From Spiroplasma endosymbiont of Lonchoptera lutea (GTDB lineage Bacteria; Bacillota_I; Bacilli_A; Mycoplasmatales; Nriv7): a stretch of 64,000 bases of DNA. Each line of letters opens with the position of its first letter. The first letter of the stretch is position 1. The position numbers and the translations under genes were made by a program. Below are positions 2,735-62,601 of the stretch, piece by piece. Below the pieces are notes generated by a model. The model was not told the DNA's origin, searched no databases, and worked only from the letters and a program-made list of their open reading frames with translations. The stretch covers positions 310,001-374,000 of the forward strand of contig NZ_OZ026463.1 in the NCBI RefSeq assembly GCF_964019715.1, written 5' to 3'.

Positions 2735-3363
2735 TATGCCAATACCCCCTCAATGTTTACTAACGCCTCTAAAGTTATTAATAACTTATTAGCGTGCAAT
2801 AAATCATAAATATTTAAACTACTAGCAGCAATGACATTAAATTTTGCAATATTACTTGCTGATTTAACAATCATTTCATCAGCTACTTTAGTAATTAATA
2901 ATGTTTTATTATCCACTAACTTTAAATTTTGACAAATTTGTAAAACTGCCTTTGTTGAATATTTTTCTAAACTAATAGTATCAACAATAATAAGTTCATT
3001 ATTTTGTGCTTTTAAAGATAACGCCGATTTTAATGCTAACTTTCTTACTTTCCGATTAACATGCAATTTATAATTTTTCTCAACTGTCGGACCAAATACA
3101 ATTCCCCCACCTTTTCATTGTGGCGAACGAATTGAACCTTGTCTGGCTCGGCCTGTTCCCTTTTGCTTTCATGGTTTTTTACCACCACCACTAACTTCAC
3201 CACGAGTTTTAGTTTGATGTGTTCCCTGTCTTCAAGACGCTTGTTGAGCAATTGTCGCATCAAACATTGCTTGTTGATGAGGCGTAATATTTCAAACTTT
3301 CTCATTTAAACTAACATCTTTAACAACATTACCATTAATATCTAATACTTGTAACTTCATCAT
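2734..3363 (-). CDS. rplD: 50S ribosomal protein L4
   Basis: 209 residues. L4 reaches into the exit tunnel and in other bacteria also regulates the S10 operon. The motif GGGKKPWKQKGTGRARQG is the family signature; its Trp codons are TGA. Two adjacent ATGs (3363 and 3360) follow GGAG at 5 and 8 nt; I take the first, but the second is equally possible. It precedes rplW in canonical order. Confidence 0.95.
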
Positions 3364-3379
3364 TTTTTCTCCTTAATAA

Positions 3380-4087
3380 TTATGCTGCTGGGGCAACGCT
3401 ACTAACATCTACTGTAGTAGTTTCAACAGGTGGTTGATTGTTAACTAAATTTGGTGGTGTTTTTGTTTTTAAGCCCTTAATCGCTTCAGTAATAACAACA
3501 AACTGTTTTTTAGGTCCTGGAATTGAACCTTTAACTAATAGCGCATTCTTAGCAACATCAATATGAATTACTTGCAAATTTTGCATTGTAACTTGTTGAT
3601 GTCCCATTCTTCCTGGCATCTTTTTTCCTTTAAAAATTCGGTTCGGAGCAATCGCACCCATTGAACCAATTTCACGATGAAATCCAGAACCATGAGCCAT
3701 CGGCCCTCTTGAATAATTATGGCGTTTAATAACTCCTGCAAAGCCTTTACCCTTGCTAATGGCTCGCACATCCACTAATTCACCAGGAGTGAAAATATCA
3801 CAATTAATAATATCTCCCATATTAAACCCTGACATTTCACGAATCTCTTTACTAAACCTTTTCGGAGTTGTCTGAGCTCTTTTAAAATGTCCTGTCAATG
3901 GTTTATTAACTAAATTAGCTCTTTTATCTTCTACCGCTAATTGCAACGAAGTATAACCATTTTTTTCTGCTGTTTTAACATCAGTAACAACATTAGGTTG
4001 CACTTCAATAACTGTTACGGGAATTATCTTTCCTTCAACAGTAAAGACCTGACTCATAGCAATTTTTCTGCCTAAAATTCCTTTCAT
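3380..4087 (-). CDS. rplC: 50S ribosomal protein L3
   Basis: 235 residues. It starts [15 protein letters not shown] and carries the L3 signature [20 protein letters not shown] and [19 protein letters not shown]. The C-terminal tail of about 25 residues ([15 protein letters not shown] onward, rich in Pro, Thr and Val) extends beyond the usual L3 end at about residue 210 and is probably disordered. It lies between rpsJ and rplD. Confidence 0.96.
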
Positions 4088-5786: not shown

Positions 5787-6822
5787 CCTGAAATGTAAAA
5801 TTAAAAAGGACACTTATATAAAAAACAAATTGTGTTAATTCTATAATTAAGAAAAGAAAGGAATTAGCACAATGTATAAGTATCTGACTATTGAATCAAT
5901 AATAGCAATAAAAGAATATAAAAGTTATGGATTTTCTATTCGTAAAATAGCAAAAGCAATTGATTATAGTAAATCAACTGTACACAGAGTTTGTAAATTA
6001 TTAAATCAAAACTTATTACCATTAGAAATATTGAATCAAGTTCAAAAAAATAAACAAAATGCAGGTAGAAAATTAATAATTTTAACTTTAACAGAAATTA
6101 ATACTATCAATCATTTGTTAATTACTAAAAATTATGCTCTTGATATAATTGCTGATTTTTTAAAGAAAAATAAAATAAAAAATATTTCAACAAAAACTTT
6201 ATATAACATGTTTAAAACAAATCGAATGGGTTTTGATGAAAAAAATTTATTGAGAAAAGGCAAAAATAAACCTCATAAACAAAAAGAAACTAGGGGCAGA
6301 ATTAATAATTGTAAATCTATTCATGAAAGAAATTTAATCATTCCAAATATTAAAAATATACAAGAATTTGGCCATTTAGAGGGAGATACTATTGTTGGTA
6401 AAGATCATAAAAGTTCTATTATTACTTTAGCTGATATATGATCAAAAACCACAATTCCTTTGAAAACTAAAAATCATAAAGCAGAAAGTATTACACAAAG
6501 TATAATAAAATTTATTTCAAAATTAATACCAGGAACAATTAAAACTATTACTTTTGATCGTGGTAAAGAATTTAGTAAATGAAAATTAATTGAAAAAAAT
6601 TGTAATGTTAAAATTTATTTTGCAGATGCTGGCAAACCTTGTCAAAGAGGTTTAAATGAGAACAATAATGGTATTTTAAGAAGATATTTACCAAAATCTA
6701 CTGATTTATCTTCATATAAACAAAAAGACTTAAATTCTATAGCATTTCAAATTAATTCTACACCCAGAAAATCATTATCTTATAAAAGACCAATAGATTT
6801 AATACAATTATTTTAAAAAACT
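5787..6822 (+). mobile_element. IS30-type element A, copy 1 (right end cut by IS3 element)
   Basis: It starts with the left end CCTGAAATGTAAAATTAAAA and runs through a complete transposase gene. The last about 25 bp, including the right terminal repeat, are missing. At 6823 the sequence switches directly to the left end of the IS3-family element. Full copies elsewhere are exactly 1061 bp. Confidence 0.92.
5872..6816 (+). CDS. IS30-family transposase (element A)
   Basis: 314 residues with internal TGA Trp codons. The N-terminus (YGFSIRKIAKAIDYSKSTVHR) is a helix-turn-helix DNA-binding domain. The catalytic DDE core is visible as EFGHLEGDTIVG, ITFDRGKEF and GLNENNNGILRRY. It catalyses cut-and-paste or circle-mediated transposition of the element. 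RBS AAGAAAGG lies upstream of ATG. The frame is intact although the element's right end is lost, so it could still act on other copies. Confidence 0.93.
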
Positions 6823-44714: not shown

Positions 44715-45775
44715 CCTGAATTGTAAATATAAATGGGACAGTTTTTTAAAATAATTGTATTAAATCTATTGGTCTTTTATAAGATAATGATTTTCTGGGT
44801 GTAGAATTAATTTGAAATGCTATAGAATTTAAGTCTTTTTGTTTATATGAAGATAAATCAGTAGATTTTGGTAAATATCTTCTTAAAATACCATTATTGT
44901 TCTCATTTAAACCTCTTTGACAAGGTTTTCCGGCATCTGCAAAATAAATTTTAACATTACAATTTTTTTCAATTAATTTTCATTTACTAAATTCTTTACC
45001 ACGATCAAAAGTAATGGTTTTAATTGTTCCTGGTATTAATTTTGAAATAAATTTTATTATACTTTGTGTAATACTTTCTGCTTTATGATTTTTAGTTTTC
45101 AAAGGAATTGTGGTTTTTGATCATATATCAGCTAAAGTAATAATAGAACTTTTATGATCTTTACCAACGATAGTATCTCCCTCTAAATGGCCAAATTCTT
45201 GTATATTTTTAATATTTGGAATGATTAAATTTCTTTCATGAATAGATTTACAATTATTAATTCTGCCCCTAGTTTCTTTTTGTTTATGAGGTTTATTTTT
45301 GCCTTTTCTCAATAAATTTTTTTCATCAAAACCCATTCGATTTGTTTTAAACATGTTATATAAAGTTTTTGTTGAAATATTTTTTATTTTATTTTTCTTT
45401 AAAAAATCAGCAATTATATCAAGAGCATAATTTTTAGTAATTAACAAATGATTGATAGTATTAATTTCTGTTAAAGTTAAAATTATTAATTTTCTACCTG
45501 CATTTTGTTTATTTTTTTGAACTTGATTCAATATTTCTAATGGTAATAAGTTTTGATTTAATAATTTACAAACTCTGTGTACAGTTGATTTACTATAATC
45601 AATTGCTTTTGCTATTTTACGAATAGAAAATCCATAACTTTTATATTCTTTTATTGCTATTATTGATTCAATAGTCAGATACTTATACATTGTGCTAATT
45701 CCTTTCTTTTCTTAATTATAGAATTAACACAATTTGTTTTTTATATAAGTGTCCTTTTTAATTTTACATTTCAGG
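44715..45775 (-). mobile_element. IS30-type element A, copy 7 (complete, TSD ATT)
   Basis: 1061 bp, flanked by ATT at 44712-44714 and 45776-45778. Removing the element restores TTTATTAATTAG..AAAATTCAC, which is found uninterrupted at about 58690-58710. The element ends 35 bp before the ATG of the secreted protein. Confidence 0.96.
44746..45690 (-). CDS. IS30-family transposase (element A, copy 7)
   Basis: 314 residues, consensus sequence, DDE core intact. Confidence 0.93.
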
Positions 45776-45810
45776 ATTAGTAAAAATTCACGAAAAGGAA
45801 GTTGACTAAT

Positions 45811-46275
45811 ATGAAAAAATTAATAGGATTAATAGGAACAATAACCATCGCCGGAAGCGGAATGGCAGGACTTGTTGGAAACGCACCAGCTATAGCAAAA
45901 AATAATATTAATTATCAACAAACAAATAATTTAGAAAATTTAAGTAGAAATAAAAGAAACATATTTGATGATGTTAAAAATTGATTTGATAACGCTGGTA
46001 AAGATACAGCATATTGAATAAATGATAAAATAAAAATTTACAATGTAATAAAAGAATTTCATCCCGGAGTTAAAAATGTTGACAAAATGCTTTCAGATTG
46101 TTTTGGTAGTGTAGAAGCAGCAAAAAATGTAGGAATTGCCACTGGAGGCGGAGCAGCAGCAGGAGCAAGCGGGGGGGGGGGCTATTGGAGCAGTTGCTGG
46201 TGGCGCTGCTGGTGTTGCTGCTTCTACAATAACTTGTATTGTCAATCATTAATTTATTTATATTGTAATTTATAA
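45811..46275 (+). CDS. Secreted glycine-zipper protein with an 11-G tract (probably phase-variable)
   Basis: Signal peptide MKKLIGLIGTITIAGSGMAG and the block LVGNAPA, then NLSRNKRN, a dibasic motif shared with 58733. The middle is Trp/Lys-rich. At 46171-46181 lie eleven G. As written, the frame continues into an unlikely Cys/Trp-rich end. With ten G it continues as AIGAVAGGAAGVAAST and stops at 46252, a glycine-zipper membrane hel­ix. So the sequenced cell is probably in an OFF or altered state. Start 45811 has AAAAGGAA upstream. Confidence 0.7.
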
Positions 46276-46496: not shown

Positions 46497-46964
46497 TTAA
46501 TTATTTTTTAATTCTGCTTTAAAAGATAATATTTTTATTGGAGTAGTAATTGTTTTGTTGGCAATTTTAACATGAATATTTGAAGCAATAAATTCTGTTT
46601 TATCAAACATTTTGTCATTTTTTATTGTAATTTTTAAGCTTTTAAGTTCGTTTCATACTATATCATTTTTCTCAAAATCTAAATCTTTTAAACCACAATT
46701 AAGTCTTCAATTTTCTTTACAACTGCTAGTTCCGTCATATTTTAATCACTTTGGAATATTAATAATTTCTTCTTCTTTGGTACTATAAAAATTTATTGTA
46801 TATTTATCGTTATATTTATATGTAATTTGAATTTTAACATTTGATAAATTTAATTTGTTAATTATTAACAGTTCGGCCGGTGACAATTGGTCTGGTTTAT
46901 TTGAACAAGCAGTTATAGATAATATTGTTAACCATAAACTAACTATTATATTTAAAATTTTCAT
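46497..46964 (-). CDS. Lipoprotein carrying the N-terminal domain of the adjacent viral adsorption-type protein
   Basis: 155 residues. Lipoprotein signal peptide with lipobox SITAC (Cys about 20), short linker (SNKPDQLSPAELL), then about 114 residues almost identical to the N-terminal domain of the protein encoded at 46999-48855 (NLSNVKIQITYKYND to KILSFKAE), ending LKNN. The 342-bp DNA match is 46512-46853 against 48379-48720. It would be displayed on the outer cell surface. It lies 35 bp downstream of the large gene on the same strand, so probably co-transcribed. Possible superinfection exclusion or receptor masking; an analogous gene is at 60259-60672. Confidence 0.85.
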
Positions 46965-46998
46965 TTTTTAACTCCTTTTATTTGTTTGAATTATAATT

Positions 46999-48855
46999 TT
47001 ACACAAAAATTCTTAATATCATTAAAAAGATGGCAAAACCGATTAAAAATTGAAAGGTGTAATAAAAGGCTGGTACTGTTTTAAAAACTGGAAAAATTGC
47101 GGTTGAAAAGTTAACTGTTGCTTTTGCGATAATTGCTAACGGTCGCAAAATCGTCATGATTTGTGAAGCAGTGAGTATTCAATTTATCATTTTGATGCCA
47201 GCGTTTTGAATGGCACATCCAATATCATTAAAAGTTGGTATTCATCGTCCAGAATATTTGCAATTTGCTGGCGAAATTAAGTCATCTCATTCACTGTTAT
47301 TTAAACTATCGGGGATAAAAGCTGTTGAATTTAATACATTAAAATCATAAATTTTAAAATTGTAGTTATAGATGTTACCTTTGTGATAAAGTGGAAAAGT
47401 TAAGGTAAAAATATTAATACCGTAACGAATATCAATATCGGTGTTGAGATAATTAATACTGTTAGCAGTCTTGCTGGTTGGCAAGGTAATCAGTTTATTA
47501 TCATAAGATTTAAGAACATTAAAATCAATTTGATAAATGCTATTGGTATTGTTAATAGCATTGTAATTATCTTGGTGCATTTTTTTGTCAAAAGTAAAGA
47601 AATAACTTCTTAGTAATAATTCTGAGTTTCCTATAATATTTACTAAGTATTTTTTGGGATAAAAGGTAATTAAGGAACGATAAAAGAAACCGATTTGAAT
47701 AAAGTAATCCTTCTTATAGTTTTCTATACCCTTAAAATCAATTTCAGTATGAGTTTTTTCGTCCATATCAAAAGTAGCATAAAATAAACTAGCAAAGAAG
47801 TTTCCAAGGATTTCATAGATTTCATCAAAAATATTTTTGTAATCACTGTTATTAATACTAGGAATGTTGTTTTTAAAATAAAGGTAAATGTCATTTCGTA
47901 AATCGGGGTCATATCGTAGAAAACTAAATTTAACACTAAGATAATTTAATGTTCCAAAAAGGTACTTAATTAGATAATAATCGTTAGTATTTGCAGTGTC
48001 ATATTTTCAAATTTCGCTTTCACCGTGTAATAATTGTAAATAGTTATTACCTGCAATTAAGGTTTTATTAAAAGCTTTAATTTTTAAAACATTTTCATTT
48101 ATTTTATCTTCACTAGTAGAACTTTTGTGATAAAAATAGCTTTCACTTTTAAAGCCGTGATTTTTAATCGTAAATTCTTTGTAATAACCTTTTTCTAAGG
48201 TGTCAATGAAATTAAATATTGGCGTTCAATATAAATAAGAATAATTGAATTTGTCAAAATCACCACGATGAATCATTAAATAGTTAAGGTTATCAATAAC
48301 ATCGCTATATTTATGTTTGCCATCAAAATTAGTGGTTGTTTCTGGTAAATCAATATCAGTTGTTGGTTTGATTTGTGCTTCTGCTTTAAAAGATAATATT
48401 TTTATTGGAGTAGTAATTGTTTTGTTGGCAATTTTAACATGAATATTTGAAGCAATAAATTCTGTTTTATCAAACATTTTGTCATTTTTTATTGTAATTT
48501 TTAAGCTTTTAAGTTCGTTTCATACTATATCATTTTTCTCAAAATCTAAATCTTTTAAACCACAATTAAGTCTTCAATTTTCTTTACAACTGCTAGTTCC
48601 GTCATATTTTAATCACTTTGGAATATTAATAATTTCTTCTTCTTTGGTACTATAAAAATTTATTGTATATTTATCGTTATATTTATATGTAATTTGAACT
48701 TTAACATTTGATAAATTTAACACATAAGTTTCTTCGCTTTCTCTTTTATTTCTAATTAATGATTGTGTTGTTGTTTCATTATTGTTAATGTTTTGGGGAA
48801 TGGTAAAAATGTTATTGAAACTAATAATTAACACGGTAAATATTTTCATAAACAT
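46999..48855 (-). CDS. Plectrovirus large adsorption-type (minor virion) protein
   Basis: 618 residues across several TGA Trp codons. Signal peptide MFMKIFTVLIISFNNIF, dibasic motif IRNKRES at about 38, variable N-terminal domain to about 160, Pro/Thr linker, conserved region (YLMIHRGDFDKFNYSYLYW, IGFFYRSLITFYPKKYL) and two C-terminal membrane helices. Position and anchor resemble the adsorption protein of filamentous phages. ATG at 48855 is preferred over an upstream GTG because GGAG lies 8 nt before it. A homologue with a different N-terminal domain is at 60726-62601. Confidence 0.82.
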
Positions 48856-48870
48856 TTTTATCACTCCTTT

Positions 48871-49143
48871 TTAAAATATTTTATTTTTCATTGTTCTTTT
48901 GGTTTTAATCTTTTTTAATATAAAACGAATTAAACAGTTCACTATTTCTGTTATGGTTAGTCATACTAAGGAATAACCTATAATCATTAACTTACCAATT
49001 GTTCCAAAATTTTTAATAAATTGTTGCAAATTTTCAATATCTGTATGTAATAATAAAACTATACTTAAAGATATGAATATAATGTAATTAAGTATTATTC
49101 ATCAATATCTTTTTAAAAAATTAATTAACTTGTTTAGTTTCAT
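48871..49143 (-). CDS. Plectrovirus small membrane protein (90 aa)
   Basis: 90 residues: YWWIILNYIIFISLSIVLLL, loop with DIENLQQFIKNFG, second helix and basic tail (KKIKTKRTMKNK). It precedes the adsorption-type gene by 15 bp and overlaps the stop of the gene before it. Homologues are at 37417-37677 and the fragment 9094-9175. Confidence 0.75.
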
Positions 49144-49177: not shown

Positions 49178-50238
49178 CCTGAAATGTAAAATTAAAAAGG
49201 ACACTTATATAAAAAACAAATTGTGTTAATTCTATAATTAAGAAAAGAAAGGAATTAGCACAATGTATAAGTATCTGACTATTGAATCAATAATAGCAAT
49301 AAAAGAATATAAAAGTTATGGATTTTCTATTCGTAAAATAGCAAAAGCAATTGATTATAGTAAATCAACTGTACACAGAGTTTGTAAATTATTAAATCAA
49401 AACTTATTACCATTAGAAATATTGAATCAAGTTCAAAAAAATAAACAAAATGCAGGTAGAAAATTAATAATTTTAACTTTAACAGAAATTAATACTATCA
49501 ATTATTTGTTAATTACTAAAAATTATGCTCTTGATATAATTGCTGATTTTTTAAAGAAAAATAAAATAAAAAATATTTCAACAAAAACTTTATATAACAT
49601 GTTTAAAACAAATCGAATGGGTTTTGATGAAAAAAATTTATTGAGAAAAGGCAAAAATAAACCTCATAAACAAAAAGAAACTAGGGGCAGAATTAATAAT
49701 TGTAAATCTATTCATGAAAGAAATTTAATCATTCCAAATATTAAAAATATACAAGAATTTGGCCATTTAGAGGGAGATACTATCGTTGGTAAAGATCATA
49801 AAAGTTCTATTATTACTTTAGCTGATCTATGATCAAAAACCACAATTCCTTTGAAAACTAAAAATCATAAAGCAGAAAGTATTACACAAAGTATAATAAA
49901 ATTTATTTCAAAATTAATACCAGGAACAATTAAAACTATTACTTTTGATCGTGGTAAAGAATTTAGTAAATGAAAATTAATTGAAAAAAATTGTAATGTT
50001 AAAATTTATTTTGCAGATGCCGGAAAACCTTGTCAAAGAGGTTTAAATGAGAACAATAATGGTATTTTAAGAAGATATTTACCAAAATCTACTGATTTAT
50101 CTTCATATAAACAAAAAGACTTAAATTCTATAGCATTTCAAATTAATTCTACACCCAGAAAATCATTATCTTATAAAAGACCAATAGATTTAATACAATT
50201 ATTTTAAAAAACTGTCCCATTTATATTTACAATTCAGG
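49178..50238 (+). mobile_element. IS30-type element A, copy 8 (complete, TSD AAT)
   Basis: 1061 bp. AAT at 49175-49177 and 50239-50241; the empty site at about 9205-9220 reads GAATAATAAAGCGG, confirming a 3-bp duplication for this element. Confidence 0.97.
49263..50207 (+). CDS. IS30-family transposase (element A, copy 8)
   Basis: 314 residues with H to Y (TINYLLI) and I to L near the core; DDE residues intact. Confidence 0.92.
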
Positions 50239-51141: not shown

Positions 51142-52125
51142 TTATTCCTTTTCTTTCATTTTTCTTAAAAATTTGCTGAATTTATCCATTTTTAAGTATT
51201 CTAAGTCTTCTAAATCAATTGCTGTGTCAGTATAGTATTTGTCTTCATAGTCAGGATTTACTTTTGCATTTAAGTAATCTCTTAAAAATGCTAGATAAAA
51301 AGAATTGTAAGTGTTTAATATTGGTAGAGGAATTTTTAGTTTAAAAAAATAAATATCAAGTTCAGGAATATCACGATATTTAATGCGACGGCCCCTTTTA
51401 TTATTTTTAGCATCAATTAAGGTGTTTCGTCAGCGTTCATATTCTTCAATGCTCGTAAAGGTGCCATAAATGACTTTTAAGTAGGGGCGAAAAATATTAA
51501 CTGGTTTTTTGCGAATTCCCACAATCACATTGTTGGCAATATCACGAACTTTAACTCAAATATGTTTATCTCTTTGACCGCTAGCCAACACAATATGACC
51601 AAAATGTCGTGCTAGAGCGAAATATTCTTGAATACCGGTTTCTTCGTTTTTGGTATTATTTTTTTCTCAATCAGTTCCTTCTAAAAATAAATTAGTTTCA
51701 TCTCACAAAAGTAAGGTTTTGTCCGGCAATACCGGATAATCAAAGTCTAACAATCCCATATGCCCTAAACTTAATTTTTGGGTTTCTAGTAATGGAAATG
51801 TTGATGCGATATGATATTTTTTCTTTTTTAGTAATTTTGATGCGTATACTAGAAAGGCGGTTTTTCCAGTTCCTAATGAACCAATAACAATATTTAATGG
51901 TGAGTTTTTTAAGAAATTAATAACTTTGTTAATTTGTGTTAAATTACTAATTTTAAAAAGGAAAATTAAAATACAACCTGCTAAAAATAAATAGCTCACA
52001 ATGTTTTTAAAATAACCGTTGTAAATATATCAAATTGCTCCTCAATGTCATAAAATTAAAAATGAGGTGCGATTTAATTCAATAAAATGGTTATTTTTTT
52101 CTATTATTCATTTGCAAAATTTCAT
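51142..52125 (-). CDS. Plectrovirus Zot-like morphogenesis ATPase
   Basis: 327 residues, nearly identical to 10106-11092: membrane segment, Walker A GSLGTGKTAF, Walker B LLLWDETNLFLEG. The stop has shifted one codon earlier (CAA to TAA). Confidence 0.87.
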
Positions 52126-52149
52126 CTTACACCTCACTTTATTTTTTTA

Positions 52150-58732: not shown

Positions 58733-59080
58733 ATGAAAAAATTACTAGCAATTTTAGGAACAATAACAATATCAGGAAACGCGATAGCATGCCTTGTTGG
58801 TAATGCTCCCGCTCCAACAAAAAATGAAATTAATTCTTTACAAACAAATAATTTAGAAACTTTAAATAGAAATAAAAGAGACTTGGGTGCTACAGCTATT
58901 ATTACCGGTATTGCAATTGGTCTTTCTTTACTTAGTTCTGGTGTTGCTATTACTGATTCTTATAACAAGGATGGCGTAGCAAAAAAAGTTATAGATGGGT
59001 ACGGAGAAAATTATGTTAGAGGTGCTGGTAAAACAACAGATTCAGATGGTTCAACTATTTGATGACCTGATGCATCATAA
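58733..59080 (+). CDS. Secreted small protein with dibasic RNKR motif
   Basis: 115 residues, last part through two TGA Trp codons. Signal peptide MKKLLAILGTITISGNAIAC, then LVGNAPAPTKNEIN and NLETLNRNKRD as in 45811. Next is a Gly/Ala/Ser-rich hydrophobic helix (GIAIGLSLLSSGVAI) and a polar end. It could be processed at NKR to release a membrane-active peptide; that is inference. Convergent with the transposase that follows. Confidence 0.68.
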
Positions 59081-60258: not shown

Positions 60259-60672
60259 TTAATGAGGCATTTCCGCTGAGAATGAAGTTATATAATGTTT
60301 AAAATCGTGTAGTTTATCCACTAATCCAATTGTAATTTTTACATTGACAATTTCTGATATAGTATAAATATCTGTTTTAAATCCACTACCAGGAGTATTA
60401 AAAGATTGTAATGTTCCATTTTTTTTATAAAAATTAAACGCAGAAATTCAGTTTTTATAACCAAACAAACGAAATCGGTTGGGATATTCAAGCTCAACAT
60501 CACTAGGTCAAGTAAAACCGCTTTCACTTATATCTAATCAATAATCACCATGATGAATTAATTTAGTTTTTTTCAAACTGGGAAATTGCAGTTTTTTTTC
60601 AAAAATACTAGGACTACATCCAAAAATAAACATTATACAAACTGAATTTAAAGCTAATAAAAATTTTCGCAT
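60259..60672 (-). CDS. Lipoprotein carrying the N-terminal domain of the adjacent viral adsorption-type protein (second virus)
   Basis: 137 residues. Signal peptide with lipobox MFIFGC (Cys about 19), short linker, then about 105 residues matching the N-terminal domain encoded at the start of 60726-62601 (NTKLIHHGDYWLDISESGF to HYITSFSAEMP), ending PH. DNA match is 60267-60567 against 62114-62415, almost identical. Unlike the large gene, its A-tract has eight A and the frame is open. Same layout as 46497-46964 but an unrelated domain sequence. Confidence 0.85.
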
Positions 60673-60725
60673 AAAGAAAAATCCTCCTTTCAAAGGAATT
60701 ATATTATAAAAAATAATGGCAATAT

Positions 60726-62601
60726 TTAAGAAAACTTTTTTAATATCATTAATAAGATTGCTAATGGCACTACAAATTCAAATAACATCTGAAATGCTGG
60801 AATAACTTCAAACACCGGAAAGGCGGTTTTGGTAAAATTAATCGTCGTTTTAGCAATATCAGCAATAGGGCGAATTAAAAGATTAATCCCAGAAAGACCA
60901 AGTAATCAATTCAACATACTAACAGAAGCATGCTGAATTCCACACGATACTGCATTAAATAAACCTCAATAAGAACAGCTGGGTATAGGAATTAAGTCAT
61001 CCATATTGCCACTTATTCCGCCACCAATAAAAGCTGTTGAATTCAAAATGTTAAAATCGTATAAAAAATAATGATATTCAGTGCTTTCATTTTTCTTTTT
61101 ATATAGCGGAAAAGTCAGTGTAAAAATATTAATTCCATACATCACATCGACTTTAGCGTTATAAAAATGCAGTTTATTATTAGTGGTGTTTCATAATTGG
61201 TTATCATATGCTTTTAAAACATTAAAATCTATTTGATAAGAACTTTTACCAGTATTAAAACCATTGACAATTTGTTTATCTTTAACAAAGAAATAAGAAC
61301 GAAAAATCATATTCTTACTATTTTCGATTGTTGAACCAAAGTTAATTAAATACTGTTTGGGATAAAAAGTAATTAAGGAACGATAGAAAAACCCCATTTG
61401 TAAAACATTTTCAGGGATTTGTTGCATCCCTTTGTAATCTAATTCTACATAAGTAGAAGCATCTGTATCAAAACTCGCATAAAAGAATTGTACAAAAAAC
61501 TCACCTAAAACTTTATAAATTTTATTAAATAAATCATTAATGAAATCAATAGTTAAATCTTTTTGATAATGAAGCATAAAATCTTTAAAATCAAATTTTA
61601 ATTTATCATCATAGCGTAAAAAATAGAAGGTATTACCATAATAATTAACTTGTCCAAAAAAGGTATTAATAAAATCTCTTCCAAAACTTGTTCGCGAGCC
61701 AGATTTTCAAAGCGATTTACCATTTTCTAAAAACTCATTATGACCCACAATGCTACCGTGCTCCGTTTTTATAGTAATAACATCACCAAAACTAGAAAAG
61801 GAAAGTTCTCTAAAAATAACTTTTTCCATCATATCAGGTTTAGGATACGAATTTTTGCGACTTAAACTAAATTTACTATTTTGTTTAAAACCATTTAATT
61901 TAATTGAAATTTCACTCATATATTTAAAATTATCGTCAAAGAAATTAAAAATGGGTACTCAATATAAATAGCTATAATTAAATTTATCAAAATCTCGGCG
62001 TTGTATCATTAAATAATCTAATTTATCTTGAAACTGATTATATTGATATTCACCATCATTTTTAGTTATTTCCGTAGGCAATGGTTGTTCGTTATCTTTT
62101 TCTGGTAAAGGGGGCATTTCCGCTGAGAATGAAGTTATATAATGTTTAAAATCGTGTAGTTTATCCACTAATCCAATTGTAATTTTTACATTGACAATTT
62201 CTGATATAGTATAAATATCTGTTTTAAATCCACTACCAGGAGTATTAAAAGATTGTAATGTTCCATTTTTTTTTATAAAAATTAAACGCAGAAATTCAGT
62301 TTTTATAACCAAACAAACGAAATCAGTTGGGATATTCAAGCTCAACATCACTAGGTCAAGTAAAACCGCTTTCACTTATATCTAATCAATAATCACCATG
62401 ATGAATTAATTTAGTGTTTTTTAAACTAGCAAACTTTAACTCACAGCTATTACCACATTGATTAGGGTTGGCGGCTCGTTTTTCTCGTTTCATAAAAAAT
62501 TGTTCCATATTAGGTTTTGATGGTTTTTTTGTATCAAAGAAGGCACCTAGAGGGACTAAACCAATAAAAGCGATAACTAACCACGATATAAATTTATACA
62601 T
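60726..62601 (-). pseudogene. Plectrovirus large adsorption-type protein, frameshifted at A9
   Basis: About 620 residues if corrected. Signal peptide MYKFISWLVIAFIGLVPLG, KREKR basic motif, N-terminal domain, Pro-rich linker (PPLPEKDNEQPLP), then the part shared with 46999-48855 (YLMIQRRDFDKFNYSYLYW, MGFFYRSLITFYPKQYL) and C-terminal membrane helices. At about 62267-62275 nine A replace the eight found in the lipoprotein copy and stop the frame after KKKWNITIF. Slippage, inactivation or sequencing error. Confidence 0.82.

What the first reader, a model, noticed from the sequence alone, without database searches (positions are those of the whole stretch)
46497..48855. Viral lipoprotein that duplicates the N-terminal domain of its own adsorption-type protein (virus 1)
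Seen: a 155-residue lipoprotein (lipobox SITAC) carries about 114 residues nearly identical to the N-terminal domain of the large membrane-anchored viral protein just upstream; 342 bp match with at least one base change. The signal peptide and ending are distinct, so it is not a simple truncated duplicate. Known: temperate phages often encode surface lipoproteins that block superinfection (T5 Llp, TP-J34 Ltp). Inference: the cell displays the virus's own receptor-binding domain, masking the host receptor or titrating it. Alternative: a donor cassette for recombination into the large gene.
Basis: partly seen in the sequence, partly recalled or inferred. Interest (0 to 1): 0.88.

Follow-up and report, generated by a model that had tools for sequence, protein, structure and literature searches.

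The report
Virus lipoprotein copies its own adhesin
Some plectroviruses of Spiroplasma bacteria carry a small predicted surface lipoprotein that copies the variable domain of their own predicted attachment protein, and in nearly every examined virus that has both genes the two copies match, which suggests a virus-specific way of closing the infected cell to its own kind.

Summary
In the window a 155-residue lipoprotein carries 342 bp of the neighbouring large viral protein with one base change; a second provirus there repeats the design with another domain. Among distinct proviral copies from five genomes of the genus, 53 of 64 have a downstream lipoprotein ORF, and 53 of 53 match their own neighbour's domain type (shuffles: mean 7.7, maximum 18). 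Different types share 26-37% identity, the rest of the large protein 92%. In SpV1/SkV1 viruses an antisense lipoprotein, not listed as a CDS in three GenBank records, copies another part of ORF1; 29 of 31 distinct cases match. Thirteen SVTS2/SVGII3-type loci have no self-copy. The large protein is remotely homologous to ORF1, called adhesion protein in SVTS2. Best reading: type-specific receptor interference, working like pIII immunity but through a dedicated lipid-anchored copy. Not shown: expression, receptor binding, protection. Against: concerted evolution could keep copies alike passively, two pairs mismatch (one in SpV1-R8A2B), and types are not over-dispersed within genomes.

The parts
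46497..46964 (-). lipoprotein gene, 155 aa, lipobox LSITA-C, directly downstream of the large gene
   Evidence: the cysteine column is invariant in the 41 lipoproteins aligned
46972..46977 (-). ribosome-binding-site-like AAGGAG, 7 bases before the lipoprotein ATG
46512..46853 (-). lipoprotein copy of the shared 342-bp domain
48379..48720 (-). large-gene copy of the shared 342-bp domain, residues 49-162, hypervariable between proviruses
46999..48864 (-). large protein, 621 aa, with signal region and C-terminal hydrophobic helix; remote homologue of plectrovirus ORF1 in its C-terminal half
48742..48753 (-). RxKR motif (residues 38-41) shortly before the variable domain; R, K and R invariant in the 49 large proteins aligned
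48871..49143 (-). 90-aa hydrophobic ORF upstream of the large gene, same strand
49263..50207 (+). IS30-like transposase gene on the opposite strand, lying within the provirus
   Evidence: another near-identical copy scanned against Pfam
51142..52137 (-). ATPase of the same provirus, homologue of SkV1 ORF2 (33% over 255 aligned columns; both match phrog_11343)
60259..60669 (-). second lipoprotein of the same design, 136 aa (the ORF list starts it at 60693)
60726..62601 (-). second large gene, frame broken inside the variable domain; its domain matches the second lipoprotein

Best explanation
The large protein is the attachment (adhesion) protein of a plectrovirus, and its hypervariable domain decides which host surface structure is bound. 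The lipoprotein is a dedicated membrane-tethered copy of that same domain. Made in the infected cell, it would sit on the outer face of the single membrane and occupy the cognate receptor. That would exclude a second virus of the same specificity and keep newly extruded virions from sticking to the producer cell. The block works only if the copies match, so selection together with DNA exchange between the copies keeps them matched, and the pair changes type together. Shown here: the anatomy, the matching, the hypervariability, the same matched type in diverged backbones, and the lack of a self-copy in SVTS2-type viruses. Inferred: translation, surface location, receptor binding and exclusion.
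For: 53 of 53 distinct A/B pairs match in type; in 39 of 53 the own neighbour is also the best or equal-best score, in 14 another protein of the same type scores slightly higher (shuffled mean 7.7, maximum 18 of 53). In SpV1, 29 of 31 distinct cores match (shuffled mean 1.5, maximum 7). The copied piece is the variable domain: mean identity between types 26% (A) or 37% (B) against 92% for the body, 81-83% for the signal region and 63-70% for the lipoprotein head. One matched type occurs in ORF1 backbones 64-68% identical (L219/L226: domain 92%, lipoprotein core 95%), and in two pairs with bodies 98% identical both copies differ in type. Pair dN/dS is 0.48 (0.41-0.57) for A and 0.39 (0.30-0.50) for B. 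ORFs found by similarity alone have a cysteine before the domain in 53 of 53 (A/B) and 37 of 39 (SpV1) cases. The large protein is homologous to ORF1 (hhalign probability 95.9, E 6e-9); ICTV labels g1 of SVTS2 the adhesion protein. No self-copy in 13 SVTS2/SVGII3-type loci. Precedent: resident pIII blocks Ff superinfection (PMC7070036, passages).
Against: No expression, binding or infection data. The lipoprotein is closer in DNA to its own partner than lipoproteins are to each other in 7 of 8 type groups, so the match is renewed by DNA exchange and could be partly passive. Two SpV1 pairs are mismatched, one of them in the GenBank virus R8A2B. Same-type proviruses are not under-represented within genomes: A 22/124 within against 51/471 between, which leans the other way; B 5/85 against 15/168, not significant. 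SpV1 pair dN/dS is 0.82 with flanks included. 11 of 64 distinct A/B copies and 11 of 47 SpV1-type ORF1s show no lipoprotein ORF of the kind searched. SVTS2, the virus whose integrated DNA was linked to resistance (Sha 1995, seen only as cited in PMC8140453 and PMC1318496), lacks the lipoprotein, so it does not explain that resistance.
Confidence: 0.62

Rival explanations
1. Homotypic capture: the domain binds itself, and the lipoprotein on the cell surface grips the attachment protein of incoming or newly made matched virions instead of masking a host receptor.
For: Predicts the same matching and needs no shared receptor.
Against: No evidence that the domain self-associates; no complex was modelled here.
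Confidence: 0.13
2. Assembly or virion role: the lipoprotein is built into the virion or helps load the attachment protein during extrusion, and matching reflects contact with its partner.
For: In the A/B set the lipoprotein start lies -7 to 72 bases from the stop of the large gene in 53 of 53 cases, same strand.
Against: In SpV1-type viruses the gene is antisense and convergent, in SkV1 with a terminator-like hairpin between the genes, so it is hardly co-transcribed with the adhesion gene; 13 SVTS2/SVGII3-type loci have no self-copy.
Confidence: 0.1
3. Donor cassette: the lipoprotein copy stores a domain for recombination into the attachment gene.
For: R8A2B carries a lipoprotein core identical to the ORF1 domain of another provirus; exchange between copies clearly happens.
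Against: 53 of 53 and 29 of 31 distinct pairs already match, so the donor would change nothing; the lipoprotein head and cysteine are conserved, which a silent donor does not need.
Confidence: 0.08
4. Passive duplication: the repeat has no function and is kept alike by gene conversion.
For: Concerted evolution; SpV1 pair dN/dS 0.82.
Against: dN/dS of 0.39-0.48 in A/B pairs; cysteine kept in 53 of 53 and 37 of 39 ORFs found by similarity alone; two different arrangements whose domains show no detectable homology.
Confidence: 0.07

Closest known systems
pIII-mediated superinfection immunity of Ff filamentous phages
   Same: The resident virus's attachment protein, made in the host, blocks adsorption of the same type of phage by saturating TolA (PMC7070036, passages).
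   Different: There the virion protein itself does it. Here a separate lipoprotein gene carries only the variable domain, in many matched types.
Superinfection exclusion genes of inoviruses
   Same: Small genes of filamentous-type prophages that limit infection (2 of 10 inovirus genes tested limited infection by other phages; PMC6813254, passages).
   Different: Those acted on unrelated phages; the passages do not describe copies of an adhesin.
T5 Llp (recalled, not tested here)
   Same: A phage lipoprotein that blocks a receptor.
   Different: Recalled as unrelated in sequence to the phage's receptor-binding protein; here it is a copy of the predicted attachment protein's domain.
TP-J34 Ltp and related superinfection-exclusion lipoproteins (recalled)
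   Same: Surface lipoprotein encoded by a temperate phage.
   Different: Recalled as acting on DNA injection through the tape measure protein, not as a copy of an adhesin.
Retroviral Env receptor interference (recalled)
   Same: A provirus-encoded receptor-binding protein makes cells refractory to viruses that use the same receptor.
   Different: Eukaryotic viruses and a whole Env protein; no relation in sequence.
ORF1 repeats annotated in plectroviruses SkV1 and C74 (NC_009987, NC_003793)
   Same: The same ORF1 repeat, recorded as repeat_region.
   Different: No CDS is recorded there; the lipoprotein ORF (frameshifted in C74) and its matching are reported here.

Membership tests
Plectroviridae (viral source) | adhesion protein homologous to plectrovirus ORF1 | tested here: met
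   hhalign A2 against A5: probability 95.9, E 6e-9, C-terminal half only; weak tblastn to SkV1, 25% identity, E 0.03
Plectroviridae (viral source) | plectrovirus-type ATPase upstream of the adhesion gene | tested here: met
   33% identity over 255 columns to SkV1 ORF2, both match phrog_11343
Plectroviridae (viral source) | rod-shaped virions with circular single-stranded DNA | not testable with these tools
   sequence only
Bacterial lipoprotein | signal peptide with lipobox cysteine | tested here: met
   cysteine invariant in 41 A/B and 30 SpV1 lipoproteins, which had been picked by a cysteine motif; picked by similarity alone, 53 of 53 and 37 of 39 have it. Lipidation itself not shown
pIII-type superinfection immunity | virus encodes a resident copy of its attachment domain | tested here: met
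   that the domain does the attaching is inferred
pIII-type superinfection immunity | blocks entry of the same virus type | not testable with these tools
   needs an infection assay
pIII-type superinfection immunity | the effector is the virion attachment protein itself | tested here: not met
   separate gene with its own lipoprotein signal; so only 'works like' is claimed
Known anti-phage defence proteins (PADLOC) | match to a model | tested here: not met
   0 families for 4 proteins at E <= 0.1
DUF3688 (PF12461, Spiroplasma phage ORF1-like) | Pfam match of the window's large protein | tested here: not met
   0 Pfam families for P0002 at E <= 1; SkV1 ORF1 matches at 2.3e-259
OB-like fold | clear structural match of the domain | tested here: inconclusive
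   best Z 6.0, 98 residues, rmsd 4.2; Foldseek best E 0.21

The most novel reading that the evidence does not exclude
Plectroviruses use a polymorphic, matched 'key and plug' locus: dozens of attachment-domain types (23 in the A/B proviruses and 22 in the SpV1 set examined here), each with its own lipid-anchored plug that gives type-specific immunity. Matched pairs pass between diverged viruses, the arrangement arose at least twice, and solo plugs left in host genomes serve as inherited antiviral genes.
Probability: 0.35. Interest if true: 0.93.

Novelty: new variant of a known kind. Interest (0 to 1): 0.86.

Why it matters
It offers a gene-level candidate for how provirus-laden spiroplasmas resist, or fail to resist, further plectroviruses, and it predicts from sequence which virus each provirus should exclude. 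It also points to the likely receptor-binding domain of these viruses (none of the papers I opened names a receptor in Spiroplasma), and it provides a large matched series for studying how self-exclusion and receptor choice evolve together.

Tried and rejected
Donor cassette: set back by near-complete matching. Over-dispersion of types within genomes as a sign of exclusion: no support; backbone A leans the other way. Common ancestry of the A/B and SpV1 variable domains: hhalign aligns only the signal peptides, so independent origin is possible but unproven. Viral contigs: no relative found by the one pattern-based scan made. P0001 against the phage collection: no match. Pfam, PHROGs and NCBIfam at E <= 1 and PADLOC at E <= 0.1 on the window pair: no family. 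PDB by sequence: one weak row each (E 0.065 and 0.16). Fold libraries: no match with E <= 0.001; weak OB-like resemblance, not used. The model of the whole large protein is poor (mean pLDDT 48.5). Consensus promoter scans are no more than chance around the SkV1 lipoprotein (12 found, 11.5 expected).

What was dropped before counting. A/B: 113 large ORFs, 21 dropped for lack of an intact N-terminus; 92 collapsed to 64 distinct; of the 53 lipoprotein ORFs two are shortened (L018, 84 aa; L141, 98 aa). The 11 without an ORF: copy over 1.2 kb downstream (L035, L111), broken copies, one of a different type (L059, L060), an inverted stretch with large-protein flanks (L022), no copy in the stretch held (L004, L025, L031, L040, L143, L153). 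SpV1: 36 of 47 distinct ORF1s had a lipoprotein by motif; C74 (L170, frameshifted) was left out; L169, L170 and L228 were left out of the SpV1 dN/dS. A first core parse gave 22 of 26: it misread two ORF1 cores (L176, L177) and dropped 9 of 35; one search replaced it with all 35. The lipobox was part of the first ORF pick, so its invariance is partly by construction; one search repeats the pick by similarity alone.

Full report
CHECK. The lipoprotein ORF (46497-46964, minus strand, code 4, 155 aa) and the large ORF (46999-48864, minus, 621 aa) are there. The shared DNA is 342 bp with one difference, Ile/Val (46512-46853 and 48379-48720). The lipoprotein has its own signal peptide, lipobox and AAGGAG. 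In the same window a second provirus has the same design with another domain: lipoprotein 60259-60669 beside 60726-62601, whose frame is broken inside the domain.

HOW GENERAL. Searches of the window's genome and four others of the genus gave many proviral copies in each; one, G001, has the length of NZ_CP065193.1, the Spiroplasma endosymbiont of Nebria riversi. Not all copies were examined: the counts rest on loci L001-L167, some of which cover the same place. From these, 113 large ORFs spanned the conserved part, 92 of them had an intact N-terminus, and 64 were distinct in domain plus lipoprotein. Of the 64, 53 have a lipoprotein ORF of at least 75 aa whose start lies -7 to 72 bases from the stop of the large gene; two are shortened. 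In all 53 the lipoprotein matches its own neighbour's type: 83-100% identity over the aligned part, scores 182-694 for the own partner against 43-295 for the best foreign type. In 39 of 53 no other protein scores higher than the own partner; in 14 another protein of the same type does. Shuffling lipoproteins within a backbone gave 7.7 matches on average and 18 at most in 10,000 trials. The other 11 of 64 lack an ORF for varied reasons (listed under Tried and rejected).

WHAT VARIES. There are two backbones, A and B. Between types the variable domain shares 26% (A, 9 types compared) or 37% (B, 12 types), while the body shares 92%, the signal region 81-83% and the lipoprotein head 63-70%. An RxKR motif stands shortly before the domain in the 49 large proteins aligned. 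At 60% identity the 64 fall into 23 types; 12 occur in more than one genome, and the window's genome has 15 types among 18 collapsed loci. Over 56 same-type pairs, which are not independent, dN/dS is 0.58 for the lipoprotein, 0.50 for the domain and 0.11 for the body.

A SECOND LINEAGE. The GenBank records of SkV1 and C74 annotate an ORF1 repeat as repeat_region only. The second copy lies in an antisense lipoprotein ORF just downstream of ORF1 (frameshifted in C74); R8A2B has such an ORF too, and none of the three records lists it as a CDS. The annotation of an S. citri plasmid does call a relative 'lipoprotein'. PHROGs matches the SkV1 lipoprotein in two parts, a 46-position family over residues 1-47 and the ORF1 family over residues 46-151. 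In seven genomes of a second genus, whose best copies are 60-98% identical to SkV1 ORF1, and the three phage records, 47 distinct ORF1s of at least 580 aa were examined; 36 have the lipoprotein. Of 35 usable lipoproteins 33 match their own ORF1 at 0.92-1.00 of the core; of 31 distinct cores 29 match, against 1.5 on average and 7 at most in shuffles; the cores form 22 types. The exceptions are R8A2B, whose lipoprotein core equals the ORF1 domain of provirus L220, and L228. One matched type sits in ORF1 backbones only 64-68% identical (L219/L226), and in two A pairs with bodies 98% identical both copies differ. Thirteen SVTS2/SVGII3-type ORF1 loci show no self-copy; a lipoprotein or weak hit lies near three of them (L260, L261, L264), which I read as neighbours, not copies. 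In ten aligned proteins of that type the lowest interior 25-column block has 0.52 majority identity, the others 0.77 or more, so no domain as variable as in SpV1 is seen.

WHAT THE LARGE PROTEIN IS. Its C-terminal half is homologous to plectrovirus ORF1 (hhalign probability 95.9, E 6e-9). The ICTV profile (PMC8295915, whole text) labels g1 of SVTS2 as adhesion protein CoaA. The ATPase of the same provirus is related to SkV1 ORF2. That the variable domain binds the receptor is inference from its place and variability.

MECHANISM. A membrane-tethered copy of the variable domain, matched to the virion's own, is best explained as receptor interference: it plugs the cognate receptor, excluding the same type and preventing re-adsorption of released virions. 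The nearest documented case is pIII of Ff phages, said to saturate TolA and block superinfection (PMC7070036, passages). Domain-domain capture would give the same genetics. A donor cassette predicts differing copies, which are rare. Passive conversion alone does not readily explain dN/dS of 0.39-0.48 in A/B pairs or the kept cysteine (53 of 53 and 37 of 39 ORFs found by similarity alone; the two exceptions are L222 and L227), though concerted evolution is real and the SpV1 ratio is 0.82.

LIMITS. No expression, location, binding or protection is shown. Types are not over-dispersed within genomes, though integrated copies may be local duplicates. Resistance of S. citri lines to SVTS2 has been tied to integrated viral DNA (Sha 1995, seen only as cited in PMC1318496 and PMC8140453, passages), but SVTS2 lacks this lipoprotein, so that case needs another cause. 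Of 11 stretches that I chose from a capped pattern listing for having no intact large gene nearby, six hold a full-length lipoprotein without large-gene sequence in the stretch; beside one of them (L246) a fragment of a large gene lies just outside it. This suggests retention but proves no benefit.

NOVELTY. 'plectrovirus, lipoprotein, adsorption' and 'DUF3688' found no paper. 'SpV1, Spiroplasma, ORF1' found four, of which I saw passages of two. 'Spiroplasma, plectrovirus' found 12 and 'Spiroplasma, prophage, superinfection' 18 (12 listed), seen as listings, with passages of three of them (PMC1318496, PMC8140453, PMC6813254) and one whole text, PMC8295915. 'superinfection exclusion, lipoprotein, prophage, receptor-binding protein' found 20, 15 listed, none opened. 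None of what I saw describes this gene. Only open-licence papers are held, so the subscription papers on SVTS2 and SpV1 could mention the repeat.

STRUCTURE. The lipoprotein model has 10-residue mean pLDDT of 72-93 over residues 31-155 except one block at 61; it is beta-rich with short helices and only weakly OB-like.

Noticed in passing
L169 (SpV1-R8A2B, NC_001365) 3039-3440(-), and L220: R8A2B carries a lipoprotein whose core is identical to the ORF1 domain of another provirus and not to its own, as if one of its two domain copies had been exchanged alone.
   Followed up: partly
window 48742-48753; also ORFs 45802-46275 and 58733-59080: RxKR stands shortly before the variable domain in the 49 large proteins aligned, and RNKR appears at a like place in two other secreted-looking ORFs, which hints at a proprotein-type cleavage in these spiroplasmas.
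   Followed up: no
L059, L060, L062, L148, L149, L152, L153, L155, L156: A longer form of the large protein (about 701-733 aa) has a different stretch after the variable domain; several of its domain types also occur in the short form.
   Followed up: partly
L237, L239, L240, L241, L244, L246: Full-length lipoproteins without large-gene sequence in the fetched stretch, most of them beside transposase-like ORFs.
   Followed up: partly
window, e.g. 5872-6816, 44746-45690, 49263-50207: Nine full-length 314-aa IS30-like transposase ORFs lie in the 64 kb, one of them inside the provirus studied.
   Followed up: no
L022: An inverted stretch with a nearly identical variable domain (99%) and large-protein flanks lies about 200 bp downstream of the large gene.
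   Followed up: no
window 46170-46183, in ORF 45802-46275: A run of G in a secreted-looking ORF, which could vary in length and shift its frame.
   Followed up: no
L060: A broken lipoprotein remnant of a different type (38% identity) from its neighbour's domain: a mismatched pair in backbone A, but decayed.
   Followed up: no
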